DNA of 64,000 nucleotides from an uncultured Elusimicrobia bacterium (GCA_903830945.1 CAIKVT010000029.1:124001-188000), one strand, 5' to 3'. Positions 48-31,634 are shown, numbered from the stretch's first letter. The notes: a model not told the origin generated them from the sequence alone. Numbers and translations are program-made.

Positions 48-2522
48 TCATTGTCCGGATTCCGGATTCACATTGGTATCCATGACTTCTTCGACCTTCT
101 GCTTCAGACCAGAATTCCCATCTTGCCCGGTCGCCTGCTGTAGAATGGCAGCTAAGGTCCCCTGGGCATTGCCGCTGTTGGTCTTCAAGTCCGCGCGCGC
201 CTGCCCCAACACGGTCTTTTTCGATGCCGCATCAGCGCTGTCTGCCGGGAGATTAGCCGTTATGGTCGTCTCGAGTGCGGCTTTTAGGTCCGGCAGGCTC
301 TCGACCTTCGCCGGCGCTGAAGCGCTGCTGGTCTTGTCCATCTGGAACTGCATGTTCGGAGTGTTTGCCACATTATTACCATTGTCATTGAGTGCCCCAA
401 TGGCGGGCGCCAAGGCTTTCGCTTTTATGATGCTCTTGCCCAGGTTGGCTTCACGCAGCGCCATCATGTCCGCATCGCTCTTCTGCTTCTGGACGATACT
501 CTTCAGGTCGCTGTAGATGCTCGCGGCGTCTTTGAAGCCGCTATCCTTGACGCCTTGTACCTGTGTCTGGATACTCTGGGTCGTAACCGTACCGGCGGCC
601 TCGCCTAGAAGTTTTTGAACTTGGCCCAAGAGCCGCTTCGCGGTCTGGTCATCTGTCTCGGCTTTTACCAAGGGGGCGGCAATAGCCGCTTGGGCATCCC
701 CCGCCGTCTTCGCACTCACCTGAGCGTTACCGTACACTTCACCGTACTTGAGCGCGTTGATGGCAGTGTTCTGTTTGTAGTCCTTGGCATCCTCCGGAAG
801 CGTATCTAAGGCGTCCTTGGTCTTACCCGCCTTATCATCGCCGATAGCCTTGCTCGCCGTCCCAGCCAGCCCCCCAACCGCAGCAACCACATTGTTCATG
901 TTGAAAACCACGCCTTGGTTTAGCTGTGAAGTCTCGACGTCATCAAGTAAGCCTTTGACGCAGCCCACACAGCCACCAACATTATCCTTCTCGTTTATGG
1001 AACTAGCCTTGCAGAGTCCGGAAGGATTGCCGTTCAATGCATCGCGAGCCTGAACCGTCTTCCGTGCCGCCTCCATCAAGGCTTGACCGACATCAGGCGC
1101 CCCTTGCAGGTCCGAGCAGACCTGCTCTAGGGTTCGATTCACGCCGCCGTCTCGCCTTTTCGCTTCATTGACGCCATCCTTCCCCGCGGTTTCCCCGTTC
1201 GAAGGGTTCTCATCCCCGGCCCCTACGTCATAGGTACAACCCGTATATATGGATTTAGCACCAGGTTGCACTTGTCCCGCGATCATACTTAAAATTTCTC
1301 CGGTGGGCTTATTAAAACACAGGCCCTTGCCTTTTTCATCGCAACTATCCGCAATATTAGCAGGCGAGATCCCTTTCTTCTCTTTACAATTATAAACATG
1401 GGAAGATTTATCGCCCCCGAACCCATCCATAGATTTCACGACGCCGGCAGTGATGGCCTTCATTGGCGTCATCACCGCTTCCTCAAGGATCTTCTGCTTA
1501 AGATCAGGCCAGAGCATCGCATCCTTCTCCTTGAGCTTCCAGGCCAAATCTATGGCATGCTGCATGTTCTGCTTGGCGGCCATAAACGCCAAAGACTCGC
1601 CCAAAGACTTGGAATCCTTGTTCCCGTTGGCGCCGTCCCCCTTGTCATCCTTACCCAGCCCACCCTCGCCCACACCGCCGTTGCCGGAGCCTCCCGGCAT
1701 GTTGATCCCGGCCGCCTGCTCGGCATTGGTCGCGGCCGAACCCTGCCGGTTAAGGGCGCTGCCTGCGTTAGCCGCGGCCTTCTTCAATGCATCCATGGAG
1801 CCCGCACTCCCGTTTTCCGGACCCCGAGACCCAACCCCCGCATAGCCCGGCATCTTGCTCACATACCCCAAAGAATTACCCTGGGCGGCTGTATTAGGCG
1901 CGTGGCTGGCGCTGATGGGCGGAGGGGACCATTGGGCGCCCCCCCCTCCTCCTGAGCCCACGCCCAGGCCGCGCAAGCCCGCATTCGTCAAAGAGGGCTT
2001 AGGAACAGGCAGGCTGGCCGCCTTAGTGGCGGCCGACGCGCCCTTGGACGCCGCGTTGGCGATAGCGTCCTTCCAATCCGTGTTCTCCTTGGCCGGCGAA
2101 GGCGGCGTCGTAGAAGTCGCCGCGGGCTGCGCCGAGGCTCCAGGGCCCATGATCAAAGAGGAAGGGTCGCGCACGTTGAGAGGCGTGATCACATCGCCGC
2201 CGCCGCCGGCGAAACTGCCGGGGGCCAGGCCGTTGACGCCCGACTCATAGGGAGAGTTCCCGTCTCCGAAGCGGCCGCCCTTGTTCATAAAGTCCCAGCC
2301 CGGCTTGAAGGAGCCGGAGTCCGCGTTCTCCGGGCTCATCATGAAATGCTCGGCCAAAGGCGCCATGAACAGAACGCCCAGACCCGCCAGGATGAAGGCC
2401 AGATCCTTCTTCTTGAACTGCTTAAGGCGCTCCATGAAGGGAAGCCTCACCGTAAGCCCCTTGATTTTAACCTGGGTTTTCTTGGAATCCTTAAGAGTGG
2501 GGATCTGCGGTTTCTGGTCCAT
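48..2522 (-). CDS. Exported Ala/Gly/Ser-rich protein with one N-terminal membrane segment (824 aa)
   Basis: I do not recognise a family. A basic N-terminus (about residues 1-40) is followed by one membrane segment (about 41-57), so the rest is probably outside the cytoplasm. Residues about 90-310 are low complexity (Gly, Ser, Ala, Asn, Pro). A Cys-rich stretch follows (about 380-530, with a CVGC motif), then a long Ala-rich, probably helical C-terminus. The ATG has a clear AAGGAG ribosome site 8 nt upstream, in a context (GGAGAACCG) nearly identical to that of the gene starting at 8544. It has its own promoter at 2649-2677. It is the last member of the exported Ala/Gly/Ser-rich group in 48-11137 and may be a surface or secreted component of the Tad-associated system (inference). 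Coding is clear from length and composition; function unknown. Confidence 0.8.
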   Translation of the reverse strand: MDQKPQIPTLKDSKKTQVKIKGLTVRLPFMERLKQFKKKDLAFILAGLGVLFMAPLAEHFMMSPENADSGSFKPGWDFMNKGGRFGDGNSPYESGVNGLAPGSFAGGGGDVITPLNVRDPSSLIMGPGASAQPAATSTTPPSPAKENTDWKDAIANAASKGASAATKAASLPVPKPSLTNAGLRGLGVGSGGGGGAQWSPPPISASHAPNTAAQGNSLGYVSKMPGYAGVGSRGPENGSAGSMDALKKAAANAGSALNRQGSAATNAEQAAGINMPGGSGNGGVGEGGLGKDDKGDGANGNKDSKSLGESLAFMAAKQNMQHAIDLAWKLKEKDAMLWPDLKQKILEEAVMTPMKAITAGVVKSMDGFGGDKSSHVYNCKEKKGISPANIADSCDEKGKGLCFNKPTGEILSMIAGQVQPGAKSIYTGCTYDVGAGDENPSNGETAGKDGVNEAKRRDGGVNRTLEQVCSDLQGAPDVGQALMEAARKTVQARDALNGNPSGLCKASSINEKDNVGGCVGCVKGLLDDVETSQLNQGVVFNMNNVVAAVGGLAGTASKAIGDDKAGKTKDALDTLPEDAKDYKQNTAINALKYGEVYGNAQVSAKTAGDAQAAIAAPLVKAETDDQTAKRLLGQVQKLLGEAAGTVTTQSIQTQVQGVKDSGFKDAASIYSDLKSIVQKQKSDADMMALREANLGKSIIKAKALAPAIGALNDNGNNVANTPNMQFQMDKTSSASAPAKVESLPDLKAALETTITANLPADSADAASKKTVLGQARADLKTNSGNAQGTLAAILQQATGQDGNSGLKQKVEEVMDTNVNPESGQ

Positions 2523-2648
2523 AGCGGTTCTCCTTAAGAACGCCGTGCTTACTAAAAACGATGCCTGCGATCATCGCGCGGGAAGGATTCAGACATATTT
2601 CCTTACTTAATTCCGCGCTTTAAAAACCCTGCCGTCAGAACCGAGGAT

Positions 2649-2677
2649 AGTGTAATATGACCCCCAGACATTGTCAA
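2649..2677 (-). promoter_or_regulatory. Sigma70-type promoter for the 824-aa gene
   Basis: Read on the minus strand: TTGACA, a 17-nt spacer, then TACACT. The predicted start of transcription is near 2642, leaving a leader of about 120 nt. The -35 context (TATTGACAnTG..TGGGGG) matches the promoter at 5243-5271, suggesting duplication or a shared regulator. Confidence 0.75.
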
Positions 2678-2748
2678 TAGAGCCAAGCGCTTTTAACCGA
2701 ATTCAAACCATGCGCAATTAAGTCGAGGGGGAACGCATGGCCGCAGGA

Positions 2749-4146
2749 TCACCGCCAGTCCAGGATTTTTTGAACAAAATTCTGCTCCTCCGGGCTTTCA
2801 CATACGAAAGAAGGATTGTCCCTGAAAGCGCAGATGCCCTGCGCTTCGCGCAGCTGGTAAGCTTGGCAGTCGGCCAGATACTCGTCCTGGATCGACTGGA
2901 GCCCGGGCAACGGCAATCTCATCTCGAAGTACGCTTGCAGCGTATAGTAAGCCGCCTGCCCGCAAGACAACGGATGGCCATTATGACAGTCCACGCGACT
3001 GGCGTCAGCCAGGTCTTCGTCGGACTTGAGCTGCCTGCTGCGCATGCTGACTTGTTCCCCCAGAGACGCCATCATGCCCGCGGAGCCCGCTGATTGCGAC
3101 AGCGCGGCTGCCACGTCGTCGCAGCCGTTGATTTTATTTGCCAGGTCCTCACCGCTGGTCATGAGCGAATCGACATAACTGCCATTGTCTATGGGCGTTG
3201 CCTCATCCGACGCGGTGACCACTCCGGATTGAAGCAGGCTATGTCCGTCGAAAGAGATAGACGCCATGTGCGCCCCGGGCTCCTTGGGACAACTGGGGCA
3301 TTGATCCATATATTTCTTCCCGCCCTTGCTGTAGGTGCGCGCCACGACCAGGTCGCAAAGAGCGTCGGCCGCCTGGTCGCACCTCGGCCCTTGCCCGGAG
3401 TTCCACGCGTTGACGACCTGCACCCCCTTCTGCTGCGAGAAAGCGGAAAGACGGCTGAGCTGGCCCCCCGCCCCAATCAAATTCCTGCCCCCGGCAAGAC
3501 TTCTCTCCCTGGTGTCCATCATCCTTTGCACCAGACCGCCGGGACCCGCATCCACGGCCCGCGCCCCGCTGTACCCACCAGCCTCCGCCAGCAGGATCCG
3601 GTTCTCCGGCCCCGCACCGGCAGAGGTGGCGGTCCCCGCGATGAGCGCCGTTGGATCGGCATTCGCAAGGCCGCTCTTCATCTCCTCAGCGGTCAGCGCG
3701 ACCGCCGTCGGCACTCCCCTGGGATTAGCCGGACTGGCCAACCCCTGGATCGTCTTGCCGCCCAGTCTCTCAGCGGTGGGTCTCGGCGCCTTGAGAAGAT
3801 CTGCGGCGCCTGCGACCAGCGCCAGAGAGGATTGCCCCGGATAGGACCCGGCCGCATACCCCAGGAGGAAAATGCGGCTGGAAGCGTCCTGCCTCGCCTT
3901 GGCGGCGAATATCGCCCGCCCCATATCAGGGAAGTCAGGGGAGCCCATATGGACGGCGACGTGCAATGCTCGCGCGATAGGCAACGGCCAGCTCACGTGG
4001 GATTGCACCGACGGCAACAACATCAAGCCGGACGCACCCGCCACCGCGAGAAGCACCAGCGGCACGGCGTCATTCTTCCTGTTGCGGAAAAAAAAGAGCA
4101 AGGCCATCAGGCCCTTTCTTTTATTCCTCTCGAAGAACTGGCTCAT
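2749..4146 (-). CDS. Exported Cys-containing protein with N-terminal membrane anchor (465 aa)
   Basis: Family not recognised. The start was set at the ATG that overlaps the upstream stop as ATGA (4143-4146); a longer reading frame exists but is only the shadow of the neighbour. A basic N-terminus precedes one membrane segment (about 27-46). The exported part is Ala/Gly-rich to about residue 220, then has numerous Cys (for example CPSC near residue 270) and ends in a hydrophilic Cys-containing domain, so disulphides in the periplasm are likely. It is translationally coupled to the gene at 4143-5129 and shares its promoter. A short module of the form LSRLSAFSQQKG in the middle resembles pieces of the neighbouring paralogues. 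Function unknown. Confidence 0.8.
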   Translation of the reverse strand: MSQFFERNKRKGLMALLFFFRNRKNDAVPLVLLAVAGASGLMLLPSVQSHVSWPLPIARALHVAVHMGSPDFPDMGRAIFAAKARQDASSRIFLLGYAAGSYPGQSSLALVAGAADLLKAPRPTAERLGGKTIQGLASPANPRGVPTAVALTAEEMKSGLANADPTALIAGTATSAGAGPENRILLAEAGGYSGARAVDAGPGGLVQRMMDTRERSLAGGRNLIGAGGQLSRLSAFSQQKGVQVVNAWNSGQGPRCDQAADALCDLVVARTYSKGGKKYMDQCPSCPKEPGAHMASISFDGHSLLQSGVVTASDEATPIDNGSYVDSLMTSGEDLANKINGCDDVAAALSQSAGSAGMMASLGEQVSMRSRQLKSDEDLADASRVDCHNGHPLSCGQAAYYTLQAYFEMRLPLPGLQSIQDEYLADCQAYQLREAQGICAFRDNPSFVCESPEEQNFVQKILDWR

Positions 4147-5129
4147 GCGGAAGATCCCCGCGCGCGCCGCCGCCGCTCCCGCACGATAACGACGCCGAGC
4201 GCGGCCAGGAAAGCCGCGATCAAGCCCCACCACCCGAAGTGTTGGTCGGGCCTCCCCAGAAGAGCAGCCAATGCCAGGACAAACTCCGCCCGCTCCCGAT
4301 CGATATCCCCCCCGGCGCGGGCCTGAAGGGCTATCTTGCAATGTTCCTTGTACCTTCGATAGCTTCCGCTCGCCATCAGCCGCGCCGCTGCATCGGCGTC
4401 CAGACCCATGGCCCGAAAGAGTTGCCGAGCGATGCCGTCGAAATACGCGGCGCTCCCACGTGCCGCCGCGTCGGCGTCTATGCCCTTGAAGAAGTCTTGA
4501 ACGGCTGCCTTCTCATCGCCGCCCTTCCATGACTCAACCAGCTTGCGCGCCCAGTCATGAACTTGGCCGGCGTCCGGCCGCTGGTCCTGATTCTCCTGCG
4601 CAGCAGCGAGCTCAGCGGTATCGCCGGAAGAGATCGGCTCGCCCCCCCCATGTCTTGCGAAAGGCTGGTCGCGCACCGCGGCGCCATCCCCAGCATTGCC
4701 TGAAACGAGACGAGCGCTGTCCACCGTTGAGGAGCTATACGCCACGCTCGCAGAATTAATGGCAGGGATGTTGCCAAGGCGCAGAGCCGGCGCCACGCCT
4801 TGCTCAAACCCGCCGGCCGGCGCGCGGCCATCATGAGCCTGCCCCTGGTTTGCCGAGCCGGCCGCCGGGCGGATGTGTCCAGCAGGGAAACCGACCCCGG
4901 TCCCGACGCCCACCGCGCCACCCGGCTGAAGACAAACGGGGAATCCGTGGGTATCGCAGCTGTTCGGATCCATGCACACCGTGCATTTCGGGGTCCCCTG
5001 CACGGTCGCCGGAGGACACACGTCGTCATTGCAGGGATTTTGATCAGCCGACGCGCCGCAAGGCAGCCAGCTGCCGCTCAGAAGAAACAAAAAGGCGGCG
5101 GCACGTGCAATCGCCATCAGCCTATTCAT
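4143..5129 (-). CDS. Exported protein with signal peptide and C-terminal membrane anchor (328 aa)
   Basis: Family not recognised. Residues 1-28 form a typical signal peptide ending near GASA. The mature N-terminus is Cys-rich (CNDDVC, CTVC, within about residues 32-68), followed by a Ser/Ala/Gly-rich linker and an alpha-helical region (about 185-285). A C-terminal membrane segment (about 293-312) is followed by an Arg-rich tail (RERRRRAR), the layout of a type I membrane protein whose tail stays in the cytoplasm. No LPXTG or PEP motif precedes the segment. It is the first gene of a two-gene unit with 2749-4146, driven by the promoter at 5243-5271. No strong ribosome site is visible at the ATG. 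Confidence 0.78.
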   Translation of the reverse strand: MNRLMAIARAAAFLFLLSGSWLPCGASADQNPCNDDVCPPATVQGTPKCTVCMDPNSCDTHGFPVCLQPGGAVGVGTGVGFPAGHIRPAAGSANQGQAHDGRAPAGGFEQGVAPALRLGNIPAINSASVAYSSSTVDSARLVSGNAGDGAAVRDQPFARHGGGEPISSGDTAELAAAQENQDQRPDAGQVHDWARKLVESWKGGDEKAAVQDFFKGIDADAAARGSAAYFDGIARQLFRAMGLDADAAARLMASGSYRRYKEHCKIALQARAGGDIDRERAEFVLALAALLGRPDQHFGWWGLIAAFLAALGVVIVRERRRRARGSSA

Positions 5130-5242
5130 AGCGCATCCCGAAGCATGACATCCATGACGATACGACCCGCAACGCGCGACGTCGCGATACTAGTGTCCTA
5201 TTGAAAATCCAAGACAAATCGTCTTTGGCTCGGCTGTGCCAT

Positions 5243-5271
5243 AGTATATGGCCGCCCCCAATCACTGTCAA
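5243..5271 (-). promoter_or_regulatory. Sigma70-type promoter for the 5129-to-2749 gene pair
   Basis: On the minus strand: TTGACA, 17-nt spacer, TATACT, close to consensus. Transcription would start near 5236, with a leader of about 105 nt. The sequence around and after the -35 box resembles the 2649-2677 promoter (shared TATTGACA and TGGGGG). Confidence 0.78.
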
Positions 5272-5358
5272 TAGGCGCTAAATATTTTTTTAATACATGA
5301 TGCGCTTGGATTCTCCAGGAGCAGCCGGGAGCCCGGAAAATAGCGCAGGTCTACCGGC

Positions 5359-6933
5359 TTATTTCAGGAAACCGGTGACCATGCCGGCGATGGCCAGCAA
5401 GCCGGCGATGATGGCCGCGGTGATGGTGAAATCCGAGAGATCGGCGATGATCAGGGCTACGCCACCCAATAACAGGCCTCCGGAGATCATGAACGAGGTG
5501 CCTTGCGGAGAGCCGCCCTGGCTGTTGATCATGAACCCTTGCGCCATGACCATCAAGGCCATCAGCCCTGCGACGACGGCCAAGCCCACGGCGATGACAT
5601 GGAGATATTTGAGCAACGGATTTCCTCTCTGAATGAGGTCGAGGACGCTCGCGATAAGGAGCAGGACGCCCGCGATCACGACCATGGCGGTGCAGGCATT
5701 CACCATCCCCTGCCAGGGCGTGACGTTCGCGCCGTTCTGGTTCTGGGTCACGCAGGCGCTGCCGTTCCAATAAGCGCCTGCCTCGTAATCGCACTGAGGA
5801 CTGTCGACGGTAGGCGTATAGGCGCCGGAGTTGCCGGCGCTCACCGCCCCTCCGCCTCCGCCCGCGCCGGCGCCGGCCGAAGCCGTCGCAGACGCGGGCG
5901 TGGCGCCGCCGTTGAGTTCGGACGACTCGAACTGGGACGAAGCCGCGGCGGCATTGACCTCGGTGGCCCTGGCTCCGCCGGACCGGATGGCGGGATTGTA
6001 CCTGGTCGACATACCGCGCAGCAAAGCCAGGGTCCTGCTGGTGGAGGAAAGGTGCTTGTGGTTCATACCCATGCCCATCTGAAGATTCTTGGCCTGAAGC
6101 GCTCCGCCCTTGCCGGACTTGGCGCTCTGCTGTCCGAATTGGGCGAGCTGTCCGGCTGAAGCCCCGATCTTCGGAGCTTTCGCGCCGCCCATGGCCCCGC
6201 CGCCCTCCGGGATGTTGCTGCCAAGAGACCGCCCGCCCGTAGCGGCGCTAAGCTTGGAGCCGCTGAGGTCGTGCGCCATCCTGTCGATCGGCATCCCGTT
6301 GCGCAGTTCAGGGCTGCTGGAGGTCTCGGTCAGTTTGTCCGAGTCCGCCCCCTGAGAGCCGGCATTCGCATCACCGCTTTTCTCGTTGGAACCCGGCGCA
6401 AGATCAGCGGATTGCAGCAAGCCGGATTGAGAGGTATAGCGCAAGCCTGAATCACCGGTGGCACGGCTGACCCTCACCGTGGAGGCGATGGCCCCCAGAT
6501 CCGCGAATAAGTTCCCCGAGGAGCCCCGGCCGTGATAGAGCACCCGATAAGCGACCGCGGAGAAGCATCCGGCGACGAGCGCGGCCGCGGCCATGAGCGC
6601 GGCCTTGCCTAACAGGGTCGCGGTCATATCCGAGAAGATAGCCGTGATCTGAGCCAGGAATCCGACTCCGGCTTCAGGAACGGCGGCGGCTGCGGCCCCA
6701 GCCCCGGCGGCCCGCGCGGCGCTGGCGGCGGCCCGCGCGACGCTGGCGGCGGCTCGCGCGCCGAATGCGCCTTCCTCCGCGGTCGCTCCGCCCAAAGGGG
6801 CGCGAACCTGCTTAGCGGTGCCCCAGGCGGCGCCGGACTTCTTACGCTCCTCTTCCTTCTTTTTTAGGTCCGGGATGTCCGCGGCGGGAGCTTGATCAGG
6901 AAGCTCGGCATCATCTTTTTCAGGCATATTCAC
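5359..6933 (-). CDS. Low-complexity membrane protein with four C-terminal transmembrane segments (524 aa)
   Basis: Family not recognised. Layout: charged cytoplasmic N-terminus (1-45, KKKEEERKK), Ala/Arg-rich helix (50-90), membrane segment (about 108-132), a long Gly/Ser/Ala-rich exported region, then a Cys pair bracketing a YWNGSAC motif (about residues 375-392), the motif NVTPWQ, and four membrane segments (about 410-432, 443-468, 480-497, 500-521). Genes at 7024 and 8560 share this layout, so the three are probably paralogues that diverged in the low-complexity part. It is the last gene of a four-gene run starting at 11137. The C-terminal part loosely recalls small multi-span pilin or VirB2-like proteins, but I see no decisive signature. 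Confidence 0.8.
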   Translation of the reverse strand: MNMPEKDDAELPDQAPAADIPDLKKKEEERKKSGAAWGTAKQVRAPLGGATAEEGAFGARAAASVARAAASAARAAGAGAAAAAVPEAGVGFLAQITAIFSDMTATLLGKAALMAAAALVAGCFSAVAYRVLYHGRGSSGNLFADLGAIASTVRVSRATGDSGLRYTSQSGLLQSADLAPGSNEKSGDANAGSQGADSDKLTETSSSPELRNGMPIDRMAHDLSGSKLSAATGGRSLGSNIPEGGGAMGGAKAPKIGASAGQLAQFGQQSAKSGKGGALQAKNLQMGMGMNHKHLSSTSRTLALLRGMSTRYNPAIRSGGARATEVNAAAASSQFESSELNGGATPASATASAGAGAGGGGGAVSAGNSGAYTPTVDSPQCDYEAGAYWNGSACVTQNQNGANVTPWQGMVNACTAMVVIAGVLLLIASVLDLIQRGNPLLKYLHVIAVGLAVVAGLMALMVMAQGFMINSQGGSPQGTSFMISGGLLLGGVALIIADLSDFTITAAIIAGLLAIAGMVTGFLK

Positions 6934-7023
6934 AGCCCTCGGAGGGGTCCTTCTTTTTTGAATATCGACAGAAAATTAAAACACCAGTTATGAACTCATC
7001 CTTTCGTATCGTATATACATTGC

Positions 7024-8544
7024 TTATTCCATTGCACCTGCAACGGTCCCTCCGGCTTCAGCCAATGCTGATAGAGCGAGCACGAGCCCCGTGGTTGTTT
7101 GTATGGCAGCTTCTGCTCCGGCTCCACCCACAAACGGATCCGTCATTGCCAGGTATCCTGCTATCCCTGTCAAAGCACCGATCCCAGTAAATATACCACC
7201 CTCAATAGTACGCCCCATGCCAACCAGCATCAGGCCCAGAATACATTGGAATGCACCAATAGCAATCAATGCCATTGCTAAAGCCTGAACCACTGCATGA
7301 TTAATTCCCTTCCAGGCTCCAACTATGAAAAGGAACGCACTAATTAACATAGCAAGAAGTGATAGAACTTCTAAGATTTTGAAATACATGTTCGTCGGAT
7401 CATTCGCCCCGGTGCCGGCCACATTCGACTGGCTGAGAACGCAGCCTCCGTCCGCCGAATTGACAAAATTCCCCTGCCAGCCATACTTCGACGCCAAATT
7501 GCCGCAGTCGTCAGCTCCCGCCGACGAGCCGCCGCCGATACCCACCGGGGTCCCGCCCCCTCCCGTGGTAGGATTAGCATCGGCTGCCCCGGTGGCCGGG
7601 CTAGCGCCGCCCGTCGATCCCCCAGCGCCGGAGAGCGTCTGCCCTGACCCGGAACCGGTGTCGAAAGGGATCGATGCCGCGGTCGAACGAGCCTCGTTGG
7701 CGCCGGCCCTCGTCTGCCCGACCATCTGAGCAGCACGATTGAGCTGTCTTTGCGCCAAGCTCCGGCCCGGGTTCCTGCTCGCCATGATATGGGAGGCTGA
7801 AGAGCCCACACCGGCCCGGTTGCTGCCCAAAGTGGACAGGACGCCGGAATTCGCATTATTCTTAGCGAGCGGGGCAAAGCCCTGCCCGATTCCACCCGAG
7901 AGCCCAGAACCTCCGGCCAAGCCGCCGCTCCCCTTGGCGAGCTCTCCGAACTTGCGGCTGAACGCCCCCTCCCTCTCCTTCTCTTTAGCAACCGAGGCAG
8001 CTGCGGCCAAAGCCCCCGGGTCCGGAGTCACAGCCCCTGAGACATTCGCCGCCTCCTTCGCCTTGGCCTCCGCGTCAGCCTTGGCCTGCGCTTCAGCCGC
8101 CGCCTTGGCCTCCGCCTCAGCCTTAGCGGCCCTAGCCGCGCGCTCCGCGGGGGTCAACCTGTCCAAACTGCCGGAAACCATACCGACGCTGTTCTGCACC
8201 GGGGCCGACCCGCCCGGGAGGCTGGACGCATCTCCATAGCTGGCCTTCTCGTTCTTGGGAGCGAAGATCGCCGGTTTTCTTTCGTACTTGTTCTCGTCCG
8301 GCCTCAAGCTCTTGCCAACGTTATAGGCGCCGACGCCCAGCGCGCCAACGAGCAGAGTGATCCCGATCTTGAGCGCGGACTGGCTTGCGATGCCGGAGAC
8401 CGTACCGAAGATCCCCCCCCCGCTACGGACAGCAGTGCCGGAGCCGCCGAACCAGGGCAAGGCTCCACCCTTCTTGCGGCGCTTCTCCCCGACCTTAGCC
8501 AATTGCATCGCCGGGATTTGCGGGATCGCCTGTTGAGTGTTCAT
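7024..8544 (-). CDS. Low-complexity membrane protein, paralogue of neighbours (506 aa)
   Basis: Family not recognised. Basic N-terminus (KRRKK), first membrane segment about 56-76, an Ala/Glu/Lys helix (about 132-170) like the TolA stalk, a Gly/Ser-rich region, a Cys pair (CGNLASKYGW ... GGCV, about 345-370) and three or four membrane segments from residue 389 on. The start has TTAGGAG 7 nt upstream, nearly the same context as the gene starting at 2522. The stretch 7024-7400, which encodes the C-terminal membrane part, is visibly richer in A/T and in A/T-ending codons than the rest of the gene, suggesting that this part has a different history. Confidence 0.8.
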   Translation of the reverse strand: MNTQQAIPQIPAMQLAKVGEKRRKKGGALPWFGGSGTAVRSGGGIFGTVSGIASQSALKIGITLLVGALGVGAYNVGKSLRPDENKYERKPAIFAPKNEKASYGDASSLPGGSAPVQNSVGMVSGSLDRLTPAERAARAAKAEAEAKAAAEAQAKADAEAKAKEAANVSGAVTPDPGALAAAASVAKEKEREGAFSRKFGELAKGSGGLAGGSGLSGGIGQGFAPLAKNNANSGVLSTLGSNRAGVGSSASHIMASRNPGRSLAQRQLNRAAQMVGQTRAGANEARSTAASIPFDTGSGSGQTLSGAGGSTGGASPATGAADANPTTGGGGTPVGIGGGSSAGADDCGNLASKYGWQGNFVNSADGGCVLSQSNVAGTGANDPTNMYFKILEVLSLLAMLISAFLFIVGAWKGINHAVVQALAMALIAIGAFQCILGLMLVGMGRTIEGGIFTGIGALTGIAGYLAMTDPFVGGAGAEAAIQTTTGLVLALSALAEAGGTVAGAME

Positions 8545-8559
8545 GACGGTTCTCCTAAC

Positions 8560-10050
8560 TTAGGCCAAATATCGGTCCAATATCACCTGCGAAGGCAGCC
8601 TGCCCACCTGCGACGACTGGTAAGGGTGGTCCCAGTCCGGCGGCCTGCCGTTCTGGAACAAGCCGGCATCGTATGATTTCTTCGGGGCCATGTACGCCCA
8701 TGCCATAGCGGCCAAGGCGGCGCCGCCGCAGACCATCATCAAAATATTCATACTGCCCGACATCGCCAAATGATTCGCCTCGTCACCTGTTCCTGCGCCG
8801 ACACTGAGCGCTCCAGCCATCAAAACACCTGCGCCGGCCACCATAAACCCGCCAGCCAGGCACAACAATTGTCCCTGCAATGGCTGGCCGTATTTTCCGC
8901 CGCCGATCTCCGCGCCCAAAGCAATCACGCCGAGAGCGACTGCCGCGGCTAATCCAGCCAGGATACCGACCCACATATGAATCTGCGCGGCTCCCAAACC
9001 TGCTGCAAACTTCATCTTGGCAACCATACTGGCCGCGAAGAGCAGCCCCGCGGCCAACATCGTCAACAGCATCGCGGTGTTGATAGCCGCCTGCCAGGGT
9101 GTGACGTTGGACCCGGTGACCGAGGGGACCGCTGAAGAGGGGAATTGATTGCCGCTCGATCCGCCGCCGGGATTGACCTTGGGAGTCTGATCTGCCGCCG
9201 AGTTCTGCGCGCCGGCCGATGAATTTTCACTCGCCGACGCCGGGGAAGGAGCCGCGGCGTTTCCGTCATAGGTGCGGCCCGCGCCCTGACTGCTCGTCGC
9301 GCCGGCCTGATCATGACGAACCGCGCCGAGCTGCTTGACGGCTCCCCCTCCCATAGTGCGCGAGCGCAGCGCCTGGAGACCGCCCGTCCCGGCCCGGGAT
9401 GCGGCCATGCCTGAAAGATTTCCGCCAGTTCCGGCCGTAAGCGAAGCCGCGTTTTTCGCCGCCCCGGCGGAGCCCAAAAGGGAGGCGCTGCTGCCCGAGC
9501 CGGACGCGGGGGGCAGCGCTCCGATCTTATGGTCCGTCTTGAGCTTGGCGACCGTGCTCCCCAAAGCATTGTCGTTCTTGAGCGGCGGCGGCGCGGCCGA
9601 AGCCGAAGCGTCGGCCGGGGCGGCTGAAGCCGCCGGCGCGGCCTGGTCCTGCGGCGCAGCCTCGCCCTTGGAGTTGGCGTCCGCCAGATATTGCAAGGAC
9701 TGTGAGACCCCGTTGGCCGAAGTGGGAGCGTCCTTTCCGGCCGCGTCCTTGGGCTTGGGAGCGAAAAGCCGGGAGAAGCTCGCGTCGCTGCGGTCCGAGG
9801 CTGTAGGGCCGAAGAGCTTGTAAGCGACCACGCCCAAAGAGCCCGCGACCGTGGTCCCGACCAGAATGAGCCCGATGATGCCGGCCTTGGTGGCCAGCAG
9901 GCCACCCGCGCCCAGAAGCCCGCCAAACCCTCCGCCGCCGGATGCGGAGCCAAAACGGAACAGGAGTGCGGCCAGACCGCTGCGCTTCTTCTCTTGCTCT
10001 TCCCGGTTGACTTCCAGATTTATCTTAGGAAGATCAGTTTCTTGGCCCAT
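8560..10050 (-). CDS. Low-complexity membrane protein, paralogue of neighbours (496 aa)
   Basis: Family not recognised. Same layout as the two genes after it: charged N-terminus (EEQEKKR), membrane segment about 55-78, Ala/Pro/Ser-rich region (110-310), the motif NVTPWQ at about residue 315 (also in the 5359-6933 product), then about four membrane segments (322-345, 350-380, 393-415, 430-454) and a hydrophilic tail of about 40 residues not found in the others. No Cys pair precedes the membrane block. A GGAGG ribosome site lies just upstream of the ATG. Gaps to its neighbours are 15 and 19 nt, so one transcript is likely. Confidence 0.8.
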   Translation of the reverse strand: MGQETDLPKINLEVNREEQEKKRSGLAALLFRFGSASGGGGFGGLLGAGGLLATKAGIIGLILVGTTVAGSLGVVAYKLFGPTASDRSDASFSRLFAPKPKDAAGKDAPTSANGVSQSLQYLADANSKGEAAPQDQAAPAASAAPADASASAAPPPLKNDNALGSTVAKLKTDHKIGALPPASGSGSSASLLGSAGAAKNAASLTAGTGGNLSGMAASRAGTGGLQALRSRTMGGGAVKQLGAVRHDQAGATSSQGAGRTYDGNAAAPSPASASENSSAGAQNSAADQTPKVNPGGGSSGNQFPSSAVPSVTGSNVTPWQAAINTAMLLTMLAAGLLFAASMVAKMKFAAGLGAAQIHMWVGILAGLAAAVALGVIALGAEIGGGKYGQPLQGQLLCLAGGFMVAGAGVLMAGALSVGAGTGDEANHLAMSGSMNILMMVCGGAALAAMAWAYMAPKKSYDAGLFQNGRPPDWDHPYQSSQVGRLPSQVILDRYLA

Positions 10051-10069
10051 ACTTCCTCCCCATTTATTG

Positions 10070-11137
10070 TCATTGTGCGGATGCTGGTAAATTTGTTATT
10101 GCCTTGTCTGTAGATATCTTTGACGTCGTTTGCAAGATGAAGGGATTGTTGGCAGTCCCAGCCGCAGCCCCGGTGCCGAAGATGCTGCCGCATATCCCCG
10201 TGACCACCCCGCCGACCACGGCGCTGATGACCATCATCATGATGGCCTTGCGCATCTCCTCGCCCTCGTCCTTGGTGGCAGCCGCGAATTTCCCAGGCAC
10301 GGGCTCGATCTTGTAAGCATTGGCATTGGGATCGTTGGGTTTAAGATTCCCGGGAACGCTATCCAAGCCCGCGTAGGAACCGCCCAAAGGCGCGCCCCCG
10401 CCCCCGATGGCCGAGCCGCCGCGGCTGCCGTCGAAACCGACTCCGGACATTGCCCGAGAAGCGTCGGCGCTCTTGGCCATGAGCGCGGTCTGACCCTGGG
10501 AGGACGCCCCTTTTAAGGAATTCATAATAGGCTTGCCGCCCTGGTTGCCGGCGCCGGGATCGCCCGAGCCCAGGCCTCTGGTCGTGATCATACCGGGCTT
10601 GGCAACGCTCGTGCCAAAAGCGCCCATCGCAGGAGAGCCGGAGTTCGCCCCGCTGCCGCCGCCGCTGCCCAGTCCGGTCAGCGAGCTGAAATTTCCCTTG
10701 GGCGGAGTGAAGCCCTTCTGGGGAGTCGCGCCGCCCCAGCTTGCGGATGCGGTCTTGCGGCTGACCTCTTTAAGAGCGTCGACGAAAGACGCGGAGCCGG
10801 TGCCGGTCATCGGCGCGCCCGGAGCCGCGGCCCCCGTTGCCGCCTCGGGCGGAGCCTGATAAAGAGACGACGTGGATTCGCCGTCCGCCTTCTTCTTGCC
10901 ATAGGCGCCATCCATTGACAGATCGTACGCGGAGCCGGGAGCGCCGCTGGGGTTGGCCATGCTGTCCAGGCTCTGATTCTCGGTTCTGAGGCCGTGCGTG
11001 CGCACGGAGCCGGACCCAACGGAAGTATCCATCAAGGGCACGCAGACCCAGGCTCCGACACCCGCGAAGCCAAGGAGAATGACCCACCAGTACTTCTTAA
11101 ACGGGTCGTTGCCCTTCTTGATCTTGATGATGTTCAT
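10070..11137 (-). CDS. Exported Gly/Ser/Ala-rich membrane protein, first of a four-gene unit (355 aa)
   Basis: Family not recognised. Short basic N-terminus (KIKKG), membrane segment about 16-33, low-complexity Gly/Ser/Pro region (60-270), then a hydrophobic segment about 300-325 rich in Met, Val and Gly, and a short tail. It looks like a reduced relative of the three paralogues that follow it. It is the first gene after the 11178-11206 promoter and is followed by 8560, 7024 and 5359 with short gaps. It may be a minor or adaptor component of the same envelope structure (inference). Confidence 0.78.
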   Translation of the reverse strand: MNIIKIKKGNDPFKKYWWVILLGFAGVGAWVCVPLMDTSVGSGSVRTHGLRTENQSLDSMANPSGAPGSAYDLSMDGAYGKKKADGESTSSLYQAPPEAATGAAAPGAPMTGTGSASFVDALKEVSRKTASASWGGATPQKGFTPPKGNFSSLTGLGSGGGSGANSGSPAMGAFGTSVAKPGMITTRGLGSGDPGAGNQGGKPIMNSLKGASSQGQTALMAKSADASRAMSGVGFDGSRGGSAIGGGGAPLGGSYAGLDSVPGNLKPNDPNANAYKIEPVPGKFAAATKDEGEEMRKAIMMMVISAVVGGVVTGICGSIFGTGAAAGTANNPFILQTTSKISTDKAITNLPASAQ

Positions 11138-11177
11138 ACCAGCGGCCCTGAGACTGCGATGGACTCCGACACGCTCA

Positions 11178-11206
11178 GTTTAGCCTCCGGCTATAGCTTT
11201 GTCAAG
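11178..11206 (-). promoter_or_regulatory. Sigma70-type promoter for the 11137-to-5359 operon
   Basis: On the minus strand: TTGACA, 17-nt spacer, TAAACT. Transcription would start near 11171, about 34 nt before the ATG at 11137. It sits in the 125-nt gap after the FtsH-like gene, so the low-complexity proteins can be expressed independently of the protease. Confidence 0.78.
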
Positions 11207-11262: not shown

Positions 11263-12972
11263 CTAAAGCGCAGGCGCGGACGCGACGCCGTCCTGCATGC
11301 CCTCAGGAGCGGCGTTGGCCGTCATGGGCGGGGATAAGGGGATGGGCCTGGGCGGCTTACCGTACTCCAGGAAAATGCTCACGATTTCATCATAATCGAG
11401 CTCTTCGCGCCGCAGAAGTTCCGCCGCGAAACGATCGAGGATGCGGGATTCAGTCCTGAGGACCTGATCCACTTCAACCATGCAATCATGAAGTATGCGC
11501 TGGGTCTCCATGTTGAGCTTCTCCTTAAGAGCCTCAGAGAGCTGATTCCCCTTCATGGACTGGCCCGCGGGGATGATGGAGAAGTCGCCGATGAGGCCAC
11601 CCTCGCCCATGCCCAGGCTCCAGACCATGTCGTGGGCGACCGTCATGGCGCTGGTGAAGTCGGATGAGACCCCGCTGGTCGTCACGCCGTAGCGGATCTT
11701 CTCTGCCGCATAGCCGCCCAAAGAAGTCTTGATGTGGCCAAGCAGCCGGTTGCGATCGGACAGGTGGAGCTCCTCGCGCGGGATATGGTGAACAACTCCC
11801 AAAGTGCCCGCCCGCTGGACGATCGAGGCTTTGAACACGTCGTCCGTAGGATGCATGAGATAAAGAACGATCAGATGGCCGGCCTCGTGGTAGGCCACCA
11901 TCTCCCGCTCCCGCGGCGACATGGTCAGGCGATGGGCCACGCCGAGCTCGATGCGCTCCAGCGCCGTGGAGAGGTCCCTGTAGTTGATGAGCTCCCGCCG
12001 ATCCCGGACCGCCACCAAAGCGGCCTCCTTAAGTATGTTCTCGATCTCGGCAGGGGTCTTAAAGACCGCCTTGCGCGCCAGGCGCGCCAGATCCACGGCC
12101 GGGTCGAGATGGATCTTGCGGGCATAGTACTCGAAGATCTCCTGACGCTCCTGAAGATTGGGCCGCCCGATGCTGATAGTGCGGTCGAAGCGTCCAGGAC
12201 GCATCAAGGCGGGGTCGAGGACCTCCTCCCGCGCGTTCATGGCACCGATGACCACGATGTGGCTCTCGTCGTCGGTCAGGCCGTCCATCTCCACGAGGAG
12301 CTGGTTCAAGGTGCTGTTGGACTCGGAGGAGCCGCCGAACGCGTCCATGAACGTGCGCTGCTTGCCGACGACCTCGAGCTCGTCGATAAAGATGATACAG
12401 GCGCCGTAGGCGCGGGCGTACTGCCGGGCCTGCTTGAAGAGCTTGCGCACGCGCGAGGCCCCCACGCCCACGAAGACCTCCACGAACTCCGAGCCCGCTG
12501 TTGAAAGGAAAGGAATGCCGGCCTCGGTGGCGATGGCCTTGGCCAGCATGGTTTTGCCGCAGCCCGGAGGCCCGATCATGAGCATGCCGTGCAGGATCTT
12601 GCCGCCCACGCGCTTGAGGGCCGCGCGGTCCTTGATGAGCTGCACCATCTCCCAGGCTTCGCGCTTGGCTTCGGTCAGGCCGATGACGTCCGTAAAGCGC
12701 ACCTTGACCTGGGAAGCGTCGACCTTCGATTTGCGCAGCTGCGCGAATCCCCCTCCGTACTGCAGGAGGTAGAGGAATCCCACGAAGACCAAGGTCTGCA
12801 GGATGCCCCAGGGCAACGAGGCCACGTTGATGCCCACGATGTAGCGCCGGACGCTCTCCTCCATGCCGGACATGTACCAGACCGGGATGAGGATGGCGAC
12901 GATGAAGCCGACCACGATGGCGACCCACAGCCAGTTGCGCTGAAAGAAGAGACGGATTTTAGCCCAGACCAT
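11263..12972 (-). CDS. FtsH-like membrane AAA ATPase-zinc protease (569 aa)
   Basis: A membrane-anchored ATP-dependent protease of the FtsH/M41 family. Two membrane segments (about 14-34 and 53-72) are separated by only some 20 residues, far shorter than the usual periplasmic domain. The AAA module has Walker A GPPGCGKT (134-141), Walker B IIFIDE (193-198) and an arginine-finger region RPGRFDR (258-264). The zinc site HEAGH is at 362-366, and the SSDFTSA stretch later supplies the expected third ligand. All catalytic residues look intact. The position after Walker B reads DELEVVGKQR where classical FtsH has DEIDAVGRQR, and the C-terminus is Pro/Ala-rich. Its place between TadE/TadG-like genes and the low-complexity proteins suggests a dedicated paralogue for quality control of that system (inference). 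Confidence 0.9.
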   Translation of the reverse strand: MVWAKIRLFFQRNWLWVAIVVGFIVAILIPVWYMSGMEESVRRYIVGINVASLPWGILQTLVFVGFLYLLQYGGGFAQLRKSKVDASQVKVRFTDVIGLTEAKREAWEMVQLIKDRAALKRVGGKILHGMLMIGPPGCGKTMLAKAIATEAGIPFLSTAGSEFVEVFVGVGASRVRKLFKQARQYARAYGACIIFIDELEVVGKQRTFMDAFGGSSESNSTLNQLLVEMDGLTDDESHIVVIGAMNAREEVLDPALMRPGRFDRTISIGRPNLQERQEIFEYYARKIHLDPAVDLARLARKAVFKTPAEIENILKEAALVAVRDRRELINYRDLSTALERIELGVAHRLTMSPREREMVAYHEAGHLIVLYLMHPTDDVFKASIVQRAGTLGVVHHIPREELHLSDRNRLLGHIKTSLGGYAAEKIRYGVTTSGVSSDFTSAMTVAHDMVWSLGMGEGGLIGDFSIIPAGQSMKGNQLSEALKEKLNMETQRILHDCMVEVDQVLRTESRILDRFAAELLRREELDYDEIVSIFLEYGKPPRPIPLSPPMTANAAPEGMQDGVASAPAL

Positions 12973-13047: not shown

Positions 13048-13533
13048 TCAGGGCGCGATACCAGGCAGGATGAAGGCGATGGGCCGGTCGCGGTTAGGCA
13101 CATATTTGGTCACCTCGAAACCGAAACCTTGATTCTTCATGAAAGGCATGCTGATCGGATTTGTACAAACCGTCAGGGTCACGACCTGCCAGACCTGAGT
13201 GCGATTGATGCCCAATCCGACCGTCTGACCCTGCGGACATCTGTGCCCGAGACCCAGGAAACCCTGCGCGGGCGTGTTATAGCCGACGTATGTCAGGACC
13301 TTATCCTGGATATCGCTTTGGAGCTGGTTGTCCGCGCCCACGAAGTTCGCGTTGCGATGAGATTCAAGCTGCCAGCGACGGGCCGCGTAGAAAGACGCGA
13401 TCTCGACCTTCTGCACGAGGATGAGCAGGGCGTAGATCTTGGCGAAAGCGAAGAGGAAGAACATGAACAGGGGAAAGAGCAAGACCGTCTCGGTCATGGC
13501 CTGCCCGGACCTGCGCCGCCGGAAGAGCCTCAT
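13048..13533 (-). CDS. TadE-like pseudopilin (161 aa)
   Basis: TadE-type minor pilin or pseudopilin of a Tad pilus. The N-terminus has the class III prepilin pattern: basic leader RRRRSG, then QAMTETVLLFPLFMFFLFAF, a hydrophobic segment with Glu near position 5 of the predicted mature chain; cleavage by a TadV-type peptidase would fall after Gly. The remainder (35-161) is a periplasmic domain with a Cys pair (HRCPQG and TVCTN). The ATG overlaps the stop of the TadG-like gene as ATGA, so the two are translationally coupled. This second TadE copy is far from the Tad core and probably serves the downstream low-complexity system (inference). Confidence 0.75.
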   Translation of the reverse strand: MRLFRRRRSGQAMTETVLLFPLFMFFLFAFAKIYALLILVQKVEIASFYAARRWQLESHRNANFVGADNQLQSDIQDKVLTYVGYNTPAQGFLGLGHRCPQGQTVGLGINRTQVWQVVTLTVCTNPISMPFMKNQGFGFEVTKYVPNRDRPIAFILPGIAP

Positions 13534-14768
13534 GGGTAGGTTCTCACCTGGAATTTCGGCGTCGGATTGGGCCAGACCGAGGCCCTGATGCCGCTGCCGT
13601 AGCCGTCTATGGCCACGCTGACATGGACGGTAGGCCCCCCGCCGGGGAAATCGGCCATGAAGTCGTGGTTGAAGTAGTTCTTGGAAACGACGAATTTATC
13701 CCCCTCCCCGCCCCAGAACTGATTGACTGGGACGCCCCGACTCCCATACTGGCTCTCGCTCCGAGCCGCGTTGAGCGTGCCGTCATGGATGGGGTAGCCC
13801 TTGTGCACGCCCGTGATGCCGTCGCTGACCGTCATGAGTTGGAAAAGGCCGTGGCATCCATTGATAGGGCTGGCCATCTGGGGGACATCCACGGGCGAAT
13901 AGACCTGCCAGGGCTGGAACATGCTGCCGGTGGGCTTGTTCCCGTAGAAATTGACGTACTGGTAGCAATGATACTGAAGGCCGCTGCCCAGGCCCCAATT
14001 GCCGATGCCGCTATCGAATGCCTTCGCCGCGTTCGCAGCGCTGTTGATGTCGGATCCGGTATTAAGCCAATAGGATTTCCTCAGGAAGTTGTGCCCGCTG
14101 CCCCCCGAGCCGGCCAGGCGCATGAGCACCGAGTACTGCGCGTCCTCGACTGAGCCGAGCAGCTGGTATATCTGGACATAGAGCTTGTAGATCGCGTTGG
14201 CGTCGTCCCAGTTGAGCCAGAAGGCGTTGGCGTCGTCTCCCTTTTCCAGGCCCGTCAGGATCGTGATGCATGGAGTTTTTCCGCTGGGCGAGCATGTCTG
14301 GGAATCGATGGAAGACGCGTCGTCGTTTTTGGCGCTGCCGAGGCCCCCGTAGCGGATGTCCCAGGAACCGTCGCTGCCGCCGTATTTGTCGTCATGCCTT
14401 GGCTGGCAGTCGCCGTTGCGCTGGGGGAATACGCCGTTCTTGCAGAGGATCGTCCAAAGCCGCTTATCGTCGGGGCCCTTGCCCGCGCAACCGGCTTTCA
14501 TCGAGCAGTCGAGGTTGGTGTCGAAGAACCCCTCGTCGAAGATTCGCATGGGGAAAGCGCCGTTGACATAGGCCGTGCGGTTTAAAAAATCGGAATAGTT
14601 GGTCATCTCGACGAACACGGCCGCGTCGATGGCGAATTGATGGCGGATCTTTTCGCGGGAGAGCTTCGCCGTCTCATAGATGAGATAGACGAAAAGCATG
14701 AGGGTCGGGAACAGGAAGAGGGCGGGGATGATGACCTGCCCCATGCGGCCTCGACGACGGAGTATCAT
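13530..14768 (-). CDS. TadG-like pseudopilin (412 aa)
   Basis: A large pseudopilin-like protein. The first 35 residues have a basic leader (LRRRGRMG) and then QVIIPALFLFPTLMLFVYLI, as in TadG/TadE N-termini. A helix with ETAKLSREKIRHQFAIDAA follows, a pattern common in TadG. The rest is a large exported domain with several Cys and many Asn, Gly and Trp. I see no von Willebrand A motif, which many TadG proteins have. The ATG at 14768 is chosen; an in-frame TTG at 14804 would add 12 residues, and neither has a clear ribosome site. It precedes and overlaps the TadE-like gene, supporting a paired role. Confidence 0.7.
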   Translation of the reverse strand: MILRRRGRMGQVIIPALFLFPTLMLFVYLIYETAKLSREKIRHQFAIDAAVFVEMTNYSDFLNRTAYVNGAFPMRIFDEGFFDTNLDCSMKAGCAGKGPDDKRLWTILCKNGVFPQRNGDCQPRHDDKYGGSDGSWDIRYGGLGSAKNDDASSIDSQTCSPSGKTPCITILTGLEKGDDANAFWLNWDDANAIYKLYVQIYQLLGSVEDAQYSVLMRLAGSGGSGHNFLRKSYWLNTGSDINSAANAAKAFDSGIGNWGLGSGLQYHCYQYVNFYGNKPTGSMFQPWQVYSPVDVPQMASPINGCHGLFQLMTVSDGITGVHKGYPIHDGTLNAARSESQYGSRGVPVNQFWGGEGDKFVVSKNYFNHDFMADFPGGGPTVHVSVAIDGYGSGIRASVWPNPTPKFQVRTYP

Positions 14769-14850
14769 CCCTAGAATGTTAGCCCGGAGCCTGTTAAAAA
14801 TCAAGGCCAGGACTGTTAAATCTTGGTGAGGCAGGAGGGCGGCCCTGCGG

Positions 14851-25169: not shown

Positions 25170-26677
25170 ACCTGCACATCTCCCAGTTTATTGACGATCT
25201 TCATGCCGATGGCGATCCATATCGTGCAGAACATCAGCACGCAGACGCCCAGCGGCGTGAAGTAGAACTCCTTCATGGGGCCCGGCTGAAAAGCGAACAT
25301 GATGAAGAACATGACCCAGGGCATGACCCCCACCACGATAGCCTGGATGCGCTGCTGCGCGGTCATGGCCGCGGTCTTCTCGATGAGCTTGGTCTCCTCG
25401 CGGATATTCTCCACGATGCGATCGAAGATCTTGGTCAAGTTGCCCCCGACTTGGCGCTGGATGACCACGGCCTTGATCATATAGGAGAGGAGCCGGCTCT
25501 GCACGCGCTCCTCGACGCCCTCCAAAGAGCGCTCCAGGCTGGTCCCCAGCTGGTAATTCTTGATGCAGAGCCCGAATTCCTCGGAGATAGGCGGCTGCAG
25601 ATCCCGATGCACCAATTCGAGGCATTGAACGAGGTCGATGCCGGATTTGAGGCCGTTGGACATCAGGATCATGGCGTCCATGAGCTGAGCCTCGCATTTC
25701 ATGCCCCGCCGCCAGCGTATGTTGCGCAGCAGCCAGCCGGGCAGGATCAGCCCCGCGTAGATGCCGAAACCCGTAAAGATCAGGAAACCAAAAGGGTCGA
25801 AGGTCAGCAGGCCGATGAGAACGCCTATGACGGCCGGCCCGCCCACAAGATAATTAACTTTGATGGTGATGAACTGGCGCTCGTAGTCATGCGCCCACTG
25901 CTTGGCCTTGACCTTATAATCCTCGACGTACTTGGCGATACGCGCCTCGTTGAGCGCGCCCACGAACCAGAAGGCCGCAAAGAACATAGCGATGCCGGCC
26001 AACTTGAAGAGCATGGCCAGCGCCATAGCGGTCTTGCGGTCCCCCGGGGGCTCGGGCGGCGCGTAGCCCCGCGGCATGCGGTTCATGACGCGAAATGCAT
26101 TGTCGGTCAAGGCCCCGACGGCCAAGACCGCTTCCCTATAGCGCTCGGCATCCGCCGAAGTCAACGCGTCGATGACGCTGTCCATCTCCTTGAGGATAAG
26201 ATCGAAATCCGCCATCACCGCCCGGCCGCGACCTCCCAAAGAACTGCCCAGATGCGCGCGGTAGAGACGGTCTAAACACATCTGGAACCGGATGCGGTTG
26301 TCGGCGTAGTCTCGCACCAGCGCTCCGGGCTGGACCAGCTGGCCTCCGTCGGAAGGCAGAAAGGTCTTTCTGGTGAGCTCGAAGAACTCGTAGAGCACCG
26401 AGATCGGAGCCTGCCAGAGCTGAGCCTCGTTGATGACCCCTTCCTCCGGGTCCTGCCAAACCGGCCGCTTAAGCATGGCGTCCAAGGTCGAGTCGATCCA
26501 GGAGGGCACCGCCAGCCCCGGGTCCCGATCCTTCTTGAAGTAGTGGTAGATGATCTGGCTCTTGGCCTCGGCCCCCTCGGTCTTGTCCACCAGGAACTTG
26601 ACCTCCGCGGACGAGAAGATTTGCGCGCCCGCGGGCGCGGCTTGCAACCACAGGATGATGCAGAACCAGGCTCTCAT
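25166..26677 (-). CDS. tadB: TadB-like platform protein with extra exported N-terminal domain (503 aa)
   Basis: The C-terminal 300 residues are a TadB: membrane segments about 270-310, a T2SSF domain (about 340-460: LMDAMILMSNGLKSGIDLVQ, QVGGNLTKIFDRI) and closing segments 465-495. The first 200 residues are not part of the usual TadB: a signal-peptide-like start (1-19, AAPAGAQ) leads into a soluble, mainly helical domain (20-205), joined through a membrane segment (about 215-236). TadB proteins are normally near 300 residues, so this is an added periplasmic domain or a gene fusion. The ATG overlaps the stop of the tadZ-tadA gene as ATGA. The fused domain might contact the secretin or TPR protein (inference). 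Confidence 0.88.
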   Translation of the reverse strand: MRAWFCIILWLQAAPAGAQIFSSAEVKFLVDKTEGAEAKSQIIYHYFKKDRDPGLAVPSWIDSTLDAMLKRPVWQDPEEGVINEAQLWQAPISVLYEFFELTRKTFLPSDGGQLVQPGALVRDYADNRIRFQMCLDRLYRAHLGSSLGGRGRAVMADFDLILKEMDSVIDALTSADAERYREAVLAVGALTDNAFRVMNRMPRGYAPPEPPGDRKTAMALAMLFKLAGIAMFFAAFWFVGALNEARIAKYVEDYKVKAKQWAHDYERQFITIKVNYLVGGPAVIGVLIGLLTFDPFGFLIFTGFGIYAGLILPGWLLRNIRWRRGMKCEAQLMDAMILMSNGLKSGIDLVQCLELVHRDLQPPISEEFGLCIKNYQLGTSLERSLEGVEERVQSRLLSYMIKAVVIQRQVGGNLTKIFDRIVENIREETKLIEKTAAMTAQQRIQAIVVGVMPWVMFFIMFAFQPGPMKEFYFTPLGVCVLMFCTIWIAIGMKIVNKLGDVQV

Positions 26678-28947: not shown

Positions 28948-28959
28948 GATGGCGCTCCC

Positions 28960-29739: not shown

Positions 29740-29782
29740 GATGTTGTACCGTTGCAGCTCAAGACGCCTCTACGCCTAGTCC

Positions 29783-31605: not shown

Positions 31606-31634
31606 AGTGTACCAGCCATGCTTTTCCTTGTCAA
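31606..31634 (-). promoter_or_regulatory. Sigma70-type promoter of the pilin-Tad operon
   Basis: On the minus strand: TTGACA, 17-nt spacer, TACACT, in an AT-rich gap (31604-31654). This is the main promoter candidate for the pilin, cpaB, secretin, tadZ-tadA, tadB and tadC genes. It shares the TATTGACA context with the promoters at 2649 and 5243. Confidence 0.8.

What the first reader, a model, noticed from the sequence alone, without database searches (positions are those of the whole stretch)
48..11137. Seven consecutive exported Ala/Gly/Ser-rich membrane proteins of unknown function beside a Tad locus
Seen in the sequence: genes at 48, 2749, 4143, 5359, 7024, 8560 and 10070 all have an exported low-complexity body and at least one membrane segment, and they are read from three TTGACA-17-TANACT promoters. 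None resembles a family I know. Known: Tad loci carry TadE/TadG pseudopilins and accessory proteins, but not a block like this. Inference: they may form a distinct cell-envelope structure or secreted matrix served by the Tad machinery, or be its substrates.
Basis: partly seen in the sequence, partly recalled or inferred. Interest (0 to 1): 0.8.

Follow-up and report, generated by a model that had tools for sequence, protein, structure and literature searches.

The report
Tad-linked membrane protein family, Elusimicrobiota
Beside the genes for a surface pilus in Elusimicrobiota bacteria sits a conserved set of inner-membrane proteins, most of them related to each other and unlike any known family, which probably form a heavily expressed, phylum-specific part of the pilus base.

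Summary
The block is real and is not a one-genome oddity. The window is from an Elusimicrobiota genome. Six of the seven proteins (P1, P2, P4-P7; not P3) recur in the same order in related genomes. P4, P5 and P6 are paralogues, and profile comparisons that far exceed column-shuffled controls link P7 to P1, P4, P5 and P6, and P2 to P5. P7 is the anchor: gene order is TadG-TadE-FtsH-P7 in the window's order and beyond. P6-P1 follow P7 in the window's order but form a separate locus, with a second P7, in another family of the class. P6-bearing genomes almost always carry this TadG (59 of 61). The three promoters exist, P7's is conserved (24 of 31), and the same type precedes the first Flp pilin. 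No match was found in Pfam, NCBIfam, the PDB, plasmids or viral contigs. The proteins lack class III signals, so they are not pilins, and their multi-membrane ends argue against exported cargo. Best reading: abundant inner-membrane tethers of a phylum-specific Tad basal or tip-assembly complex, serviced by a dedicated FtsH. Family, synteny and promoters are shown; function is inferred. P3 occurs only in this genome.

The parts
48..2522 (-). P1, 824 aa, one N-terminal membrane segment (about residue 41), conserved N-terminal third, variable remainder
   Evidence: profile match to P7 93%, E 2.5e-7, shuffled scores less than half
2649..2677 (-). promoter TTGACA-17-TACACT upstream of P1
2749..4146 (-). 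P2, 465 aa, one N-terminal membrane segment; central segment resembles P5
   Evidence: P2-P5 score 48 against at most 26 shuffled; promoter of the same type upstream of P2 in 7 of 9 P2 genes
4143..5129 (-). P3, 328 aa, signal-like N terminus, Cys-rich start, C-terminal membrane segment; found only in this genome
5243..5271 (-). promoter TTGACA-17-TATACT upstream of P3
5359..6933 (-). P4, 524 aa, paralogue of P5 and P6
7024..8544 (-). P5, 506 aa, paralogue of P6
8560..10050 (-). P6, 496 aa: N-terminal membrane helix (about 55-80), disordered body with a conserved helical segment (236-261), C-terminal four-helix membrane bundle (about 320-454)
10070..11137 (-). P7, 355 aa: membrane helix 17-36, helix 203-234 ending in the invariant FD(G) motif (F235, D236), C-terminal helix 291-312; the anchor gene, next to FtsH and TadE2/TadG
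11177..11205 (-). promoter TTGACA-17-TAAACT upstream of P7; conserved in 24 of 31 P7 genes
11263..12972 (-). dedicated second FtsH-type AAA+/M41 protease (HExxH kept), apart from the other M41 gene of the genome at C39
13048..13533 (-). TadE2 minor pilin (class III signal GQAMTE); invariant C terminus YVPNRDRPI.F.LPG
13530..14804 (-). TadG-like minor pilin with invariant NYSDF.NR.AYVNGAFP; protein start probably 14744
26674..28947 (-). TadZ-TadA fusion ATPase
   Evidence: (CbiA plus T2SSE)
31196..31399 (-). Flp-like pilin 1 (class III site GQNTVEY)
31421..31603 (-). Flp-like pilin 2 (class III site GQAAVEY)
31606..31634 (-). promoter TTGACA-17-TACACT before the first pilin; a like promoter at the same place in all nine other loci of this family that were read

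Best explanation
The block encodes a new, phylum-restricted set of inner-membrane proteins that belong to the Tad (type IVc) pilus system of Elusimicrobiota. Shown: P4, P5 and P6 are paralogues; P1, P4, P5 and P6 each match P7 by profile comparison, and P2 matches P5; the matches meet in a central segment that in P7 (and more weakly in P6) is predicted as a helix, between a membrane anchor and a C-terminal membrane helix or bundle; P7 is locked to TadG-TadE2-FtsH. Inferred: the anchors sit in the inner membrane, the Gly/Ala/Ser-rich bodies reach into the periplasm as flexible tethers, and the shared helix docks on a common partner, most plausibly the minor-pilin (TadE2/TadG) tip-initiation complex or the RcpC/secretin conduit, which here has an unusually short secretin. 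The linked FtsH would remove unassembled minor pilins or P proteins. Conserved near-consensus promoters before the pilin and before P7 suggest that P7-P4 are made in large amounts. P6-P1 would be an added shell around the P7 core.
For: Gene order P7-(FtsH)-TadE2-TadG in 24 of 24 readable loci and across other families of the class. Co-occurrence of P6 with TadG: 59 of 61 genomes with P6 against 70 of 187 without (Fisher p 3e-18). Profile relationships against column-shuffled controls. Similar predicted order of elements in P6 and P7. No class III signals in P1-P7, while Flp1, Flp2, TadE1 and TadE2 have them. Second FtsH separate from the other M41 gene. Promoter upstream of 24 of 31 P7 genes, against 1 of 167 unassigned genes and 0 of 74 TadG, TadE2 and FtsH genes, and a like promoter at the pilin in ten loci of the window's family, window included. 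Minor pilins TadE/F/G are proposed to form the Tad pilus tip (PMC12075869) and RcpC a periplasmic conduit (PMC12307814).
Against: No experiment and no known-function homologue. In family f13 the P7-P6-P5-P2-P1 set lies at a locus away from Tad, and in f2 TadZA is on another contig than TadG. 70 genomes carry this TadG without P6, so P6-P1 are not needed for a Tad pilus. Co-occurrence is confounded by shared ancestry. Topology and docking are inferred from hydropathy and low-confidence models (mean pLDDT 60 and 54).
Confidence: 0.55

Rival explanations
1. Independent envelope structure: the P proteins build a separate membrane-anchored periplasmic scaffold or matrix whose genes merely neighbour the Tad cluster in the window's lineage.
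For: In family f13 the same genes form their own locus away from TadG and FtsH; in f2 the TadG-FtsH-P block is on another contig than TadZA; an orphan P4 paralogue stands alone with its own promoter in this genome.
Against: P7 keeps its place beside TadG-TadE2 even where P6-P1 are absent or elsewhere, and P6 is nearly confined to genomes with this TadG (59 of 61).
Confidence: 0.27
2. Tad-exported substrates or surface matrix: the low-complexity bodies are exported by the Tad machinery.
For: Gly/Ala/Ser-rich, disordered bodies; strong conserved promoters; linkage to Tad.
Against: No class III signal in any of the seven, unlike Flp1, Flp2, TadE1 and TadE2; P4-P6 carry multi-helix C-terminal membrane bundles, which keep a protein in the inner membrane.
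Confidence: 0.08
3. Components of a conjugation or other DNA/protein transfer machine, or of a phage.
For: Only sub-threshold hits: a conjugal pilin-like model to P7 (13 bits, cut-off 40) and a virion structural PHROG family (E 0.0076).
Against: No plasmid match for P6, no relative in IMG/VR viral contigs, stable chromosomal synteny over an order.
Confidence: 0.03

Closest known systems
Tad/Flp (type IVc) pilus locus
   Same: The adjacent cluster has Flp-like pilins, TadE, RcpC, a secretin, TadZ-TadA, TadB, TadC, a TPR protein and a TadG-like minor pilin
   Different: Carries a family of membrane proteins (P7, P6-P4, P2, P1), a dedicated FtsH, a fused TadZ-TadA and a short secretin; tad loci as recalled from memory have no such block
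TadE/TadF/TadG minor-pilin tip complex (Kil pilus of Myxococcus, PMC12075869)
   Same: TadE2 and TadG minor pilins, next to P7
   Different: P proteins are not pilins; no P-like partner was found in the passages of that paper that were read
RcpC/CpaB periplasmic conduit (PMC12307814)
   Same: Both proposed to span inner membrane to secretin; RcpC is present here
   Different: No match of the P proteins to the RcpC family (Pfam scan)
TolA-type inner-membrane tethers
   Same: Membrane anchor followed by a long Ala-rich region; P5 scores weakly to TolA models (22 bits)
   Different: Far below the cut-off of 213 bits; the C-terminal membrane bundle is unlike TolA

Membership tests
Tad/Flp pilus system (the cluster as a whole) | TadA ATPase with TadB/TadC platform | tested here: met
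   T2SSE E 4e-63; T2SSF E 1e-17 and 3e-17
Tad/Flp pilus system (the cluster as a whole) | TadZ, RcpC and secretin | tested here: met
   CbiA domain fused to TadA; RcpC E 5e-17; Secretin E 3e-40
Tad/Flp pilus system (the cluster as a whole) | Flp pilin with class III signal | tested here: inconclusive
   Two small ORFs with G-Q-x-x-V-E-Y sites, conserved in relatives; PF04964 has no match in the genome; Class_IIIsignal and Flp1_like below cut-off
Tad/Flp pilus system (the cluster as a whole) | TadE and TadG minor pilins | tested here: met
   TadE1 above cut-off; TadE2 family 13 of 25 members at E up to 0.01; TadG only weak (PF13400 in 2 of 24)
Tad/Flp pilus system (the cluster as a whole) | A24 prepilin peptidase in the genome | tested here: met
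   One over cut-off at C1:73096-73431
Type IV (pseudo)pilin family (P1-P7) | Class III signal peptide, G/A-x4-E before a hydrophobic helix | tested here: not met
   Pattern absent from all seven, present in Flp1, Flp2, TadE1 and TadE2 (the pattern also misses TadG)
FtsH protease (11263-12972) | AAA domain plus M41 peptidase with HExxH and N-terminal membrane segments | tested here: met
TolA | Score above the curated cut-off | tested here: not met
   22 bits against 213
Four-helix-bundle proteins seen by fold search with P6 | Fold match clearly above unrelated bundles | tested here: inconclusive
   Foldseek best E 0.14; VIA-align Z about 12 shared by many unrelated helical bundles

The most novel reading that the evidence does not exclude
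Elusimicrobiota Tad systems use a distinct inner-membrane apparatus, built from a new multi-paralogue protein superfamily with disordered periplasmic tethers and a dedicated FtsH, that couples the minor-pilin tip to the envelope; a new class of type IV filament basal complex.
Probability: 0.3. Interest if true: 0.75.

Novelty: new variant of a known kind. Interest (0 to 1): 0.5.

Why it matters
Tad systems in Elusimicrobia have been noted (PMC6668835), but four literature searches here found no description of this block, of P7, or of a Tad-linked FtsH. If P7-P1 are part of the pilus base, they are unrecognised components of a widespread filament system, in a phylum with few cultured members. 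The conserved TadG-TadE2-FtsH-P7 unit also offers a direct test of whether a dedicated FtsH controls pilus-tip assembly.

Tried and rejected
Promoter regulon: the shared TTGACA-17-TANACT box looked like a special regulon, but its 25 genomic copies precede diverse genes, so it is read only as a strong promoter. P7 motif searched with hmmsearch in single proteins: 3 of 17 P4 and 2 of 19 P5 reach 15 bits, none of the P6 and P1 do, and one P2 shuffle reached 15.7 bits; profile-profile comparison with column shuffles was used instead. AlphaFold of P6 and P7: mostly low confidence; the P6 bundle matches many unrelated helical bundles; P7 was not fold-searched, and P1-P5 and TadG were not folded. Viral contigs and plasmids: no P6 relatives. 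PDB sequence search: none for P6, nothing meaningful for P7 and TadG.

Full report
What is in the sequence. Seven minus-strand ORFs at 48-11137 are confirmed, called P1 (48-2522) to P7 (10070-11137) from left to right, followed upstream by FtsH (11263-12972), TadE2 (13048-13533) and TadG (13530-14804). The next two genes in the same direction, P0 (880 aa) and a 2609-aa protein 'Big', lie left of the window. The Tad core lies at 24258-31603, with two Flp-like pilins at 31196-31399 and 31421-31603. Low complexity is clear for P4-P7 and mild for P1-P3.

Where it comes from. TadG-based scanning of one genome for each of 84,980 bacterial and archaeal species gave 105 confirmed relatives, of which the best 80 were kept; these are titled Elusimicrobia/Elusimicrobiota, or only 'bacterium'. 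The window is therefore read as Elusimicrobiota.

Conservation. P6 has homologues in 36 of 57 genomes searched, the window's own included. At the loci read, gene order is P1-P2-P4-P5-P6-P7-FtsH-TadE2-TadG with losses and insertions. In the 24 of those loci that hold both P7 and TadG they are neighbours in this order; FtsH was not called in one (L041) and a few have inserts. P3 has no homologue there. P6 forms one orthologous group across two families of the order (support 99/98), and the P5 position is nearly so. In family f13 the set P7-P6-P5-P2-P1 forms a separate locus, while another P7 copy stays near TadG at many Tad loci. In Elusimicrobiales-like genomes a P7-like gene follows TadG-TadE2 or FtsH.

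Co-occurrence. Among 248 phylum genomes, TadG (A1) was found in 129, TadZ-TadA at E 1e-60 or better in 196, P6 in 61 and P7 in 61. P6-bearing genomes carry TadG in 59 of 61 and TadZA in 58 of 61; Fisher p 3e-18 and 2e-4 (counts taken from the genome tables). Shared ancestry inflates these. 70 genomes carry this TadG without P6.

One family. P4, P5 and P6 are paralogues (hhalign 99.5-99.8%). With column-shuffled controls, P1-P7, P6-P7, P5-P7, P4-P7 and P2-P5 score above every shuffle (64.8, 68.2, 46.9, 44.4 and 48.4 against maxima of 27.1, 24.7, 32.9, 23.5 and 25.6). P1 against P4, P5 and P6 gives nothing clear beyond shuffles, so the links run through P7. The matches meet in a segment that in P7 is helix 203-234 followed by the invariant F235-D236.

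Topology and machinery. P4-P6 have five hydropathic segments each, P7 two, P1 and P2 one. AlphaFold gives confidence only to the P6 C-terminal four-helix bundle and the first membrane helix of P7; fold search with P6 shows generic bundles only. P1-P7 lack class III signals that Flp1, Flp2, TadE1 and TadE2 have. The FtsH is one of two M41 proteins in the genome.

Promoters. The three promoters are exact, with a fourth at the first pilin and none expected. A strict match precedes 24 of 31 P7 and 7 of 9 P2 genes, against 1 of 167 unassigned genes and 0 of 74 TadG, TadE2 and FtsH genes. A like box precedes the first pilin in nine of nine other loci of the window's family that were read, but in none of the five loci of other families. 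Because the genome has 25 exact copies before varied genes, and C outnumbers A at the fifth base of the -10 hexamer (25 TANACT, 7 TANAAT of 48 TTGACA-17-TANNNT), this is read as a strong promoter, not a dedicated regulon.

Literature. Denise et al. (PMC6668835) report Tad systems in Elusimicrobia; Herrou et al. (PMC12075869) propose TadE/F/G as the pilus tip. Only passages found by term search were read in those two papers, and only the listed start of the abstract of PMC12307814. Four searches found no account of this block.

Reading. The best-supported account is a phylum-specific membrane component of the Tad base or tip-assembly machinery (0.55), with an independent envelope structure as the main rival (0.27). 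What is shown is family, order, co-occurrence and promoters. Topology, abundance, docking partner and the role of FtsH are inferred.

Noticed in passing
L040:6709-7557, L060:6129-6974, L054:7771-9060, L066:14865-16280, L070:6412-7536: Genes next to the P block in related genomes; the L040 one matches the caspase domain Peptidase_C14 (E 3e-13), the others look alike by eye.
   Followed up: partly
L009:8474-16303 (left of the window): 2609-aa protein with helicase-like motifs (TTGGGKTLL, DEMDGAAL, QAEGRI) and a signal-like start; no significant Pfam or PDB match. A similar gene follows P0 in L046.
   Followed up: partly
window:28960-29739: The secretin is short (259 aa); lengths called in 14 relatives are 240-310 aa except one call of 480 aa with an unchecked start.
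   Followed up: partly
genome G000: Of 48 TTGACA-17-TANNNT sites, 25 have TANACT and 7 TANAAT, so the preferred -10 may be unusual.
   Followed up: partly
G000:C40:40814-42418 (L168:8866-10419): Orphan P4 paralogue with its own promoter of the same type, away from Tad.
   Followed up: partly
window:14851-15897: DUF2332 gene between TadG and the two-component regulators, conserved at many loci.
   Followed up: no
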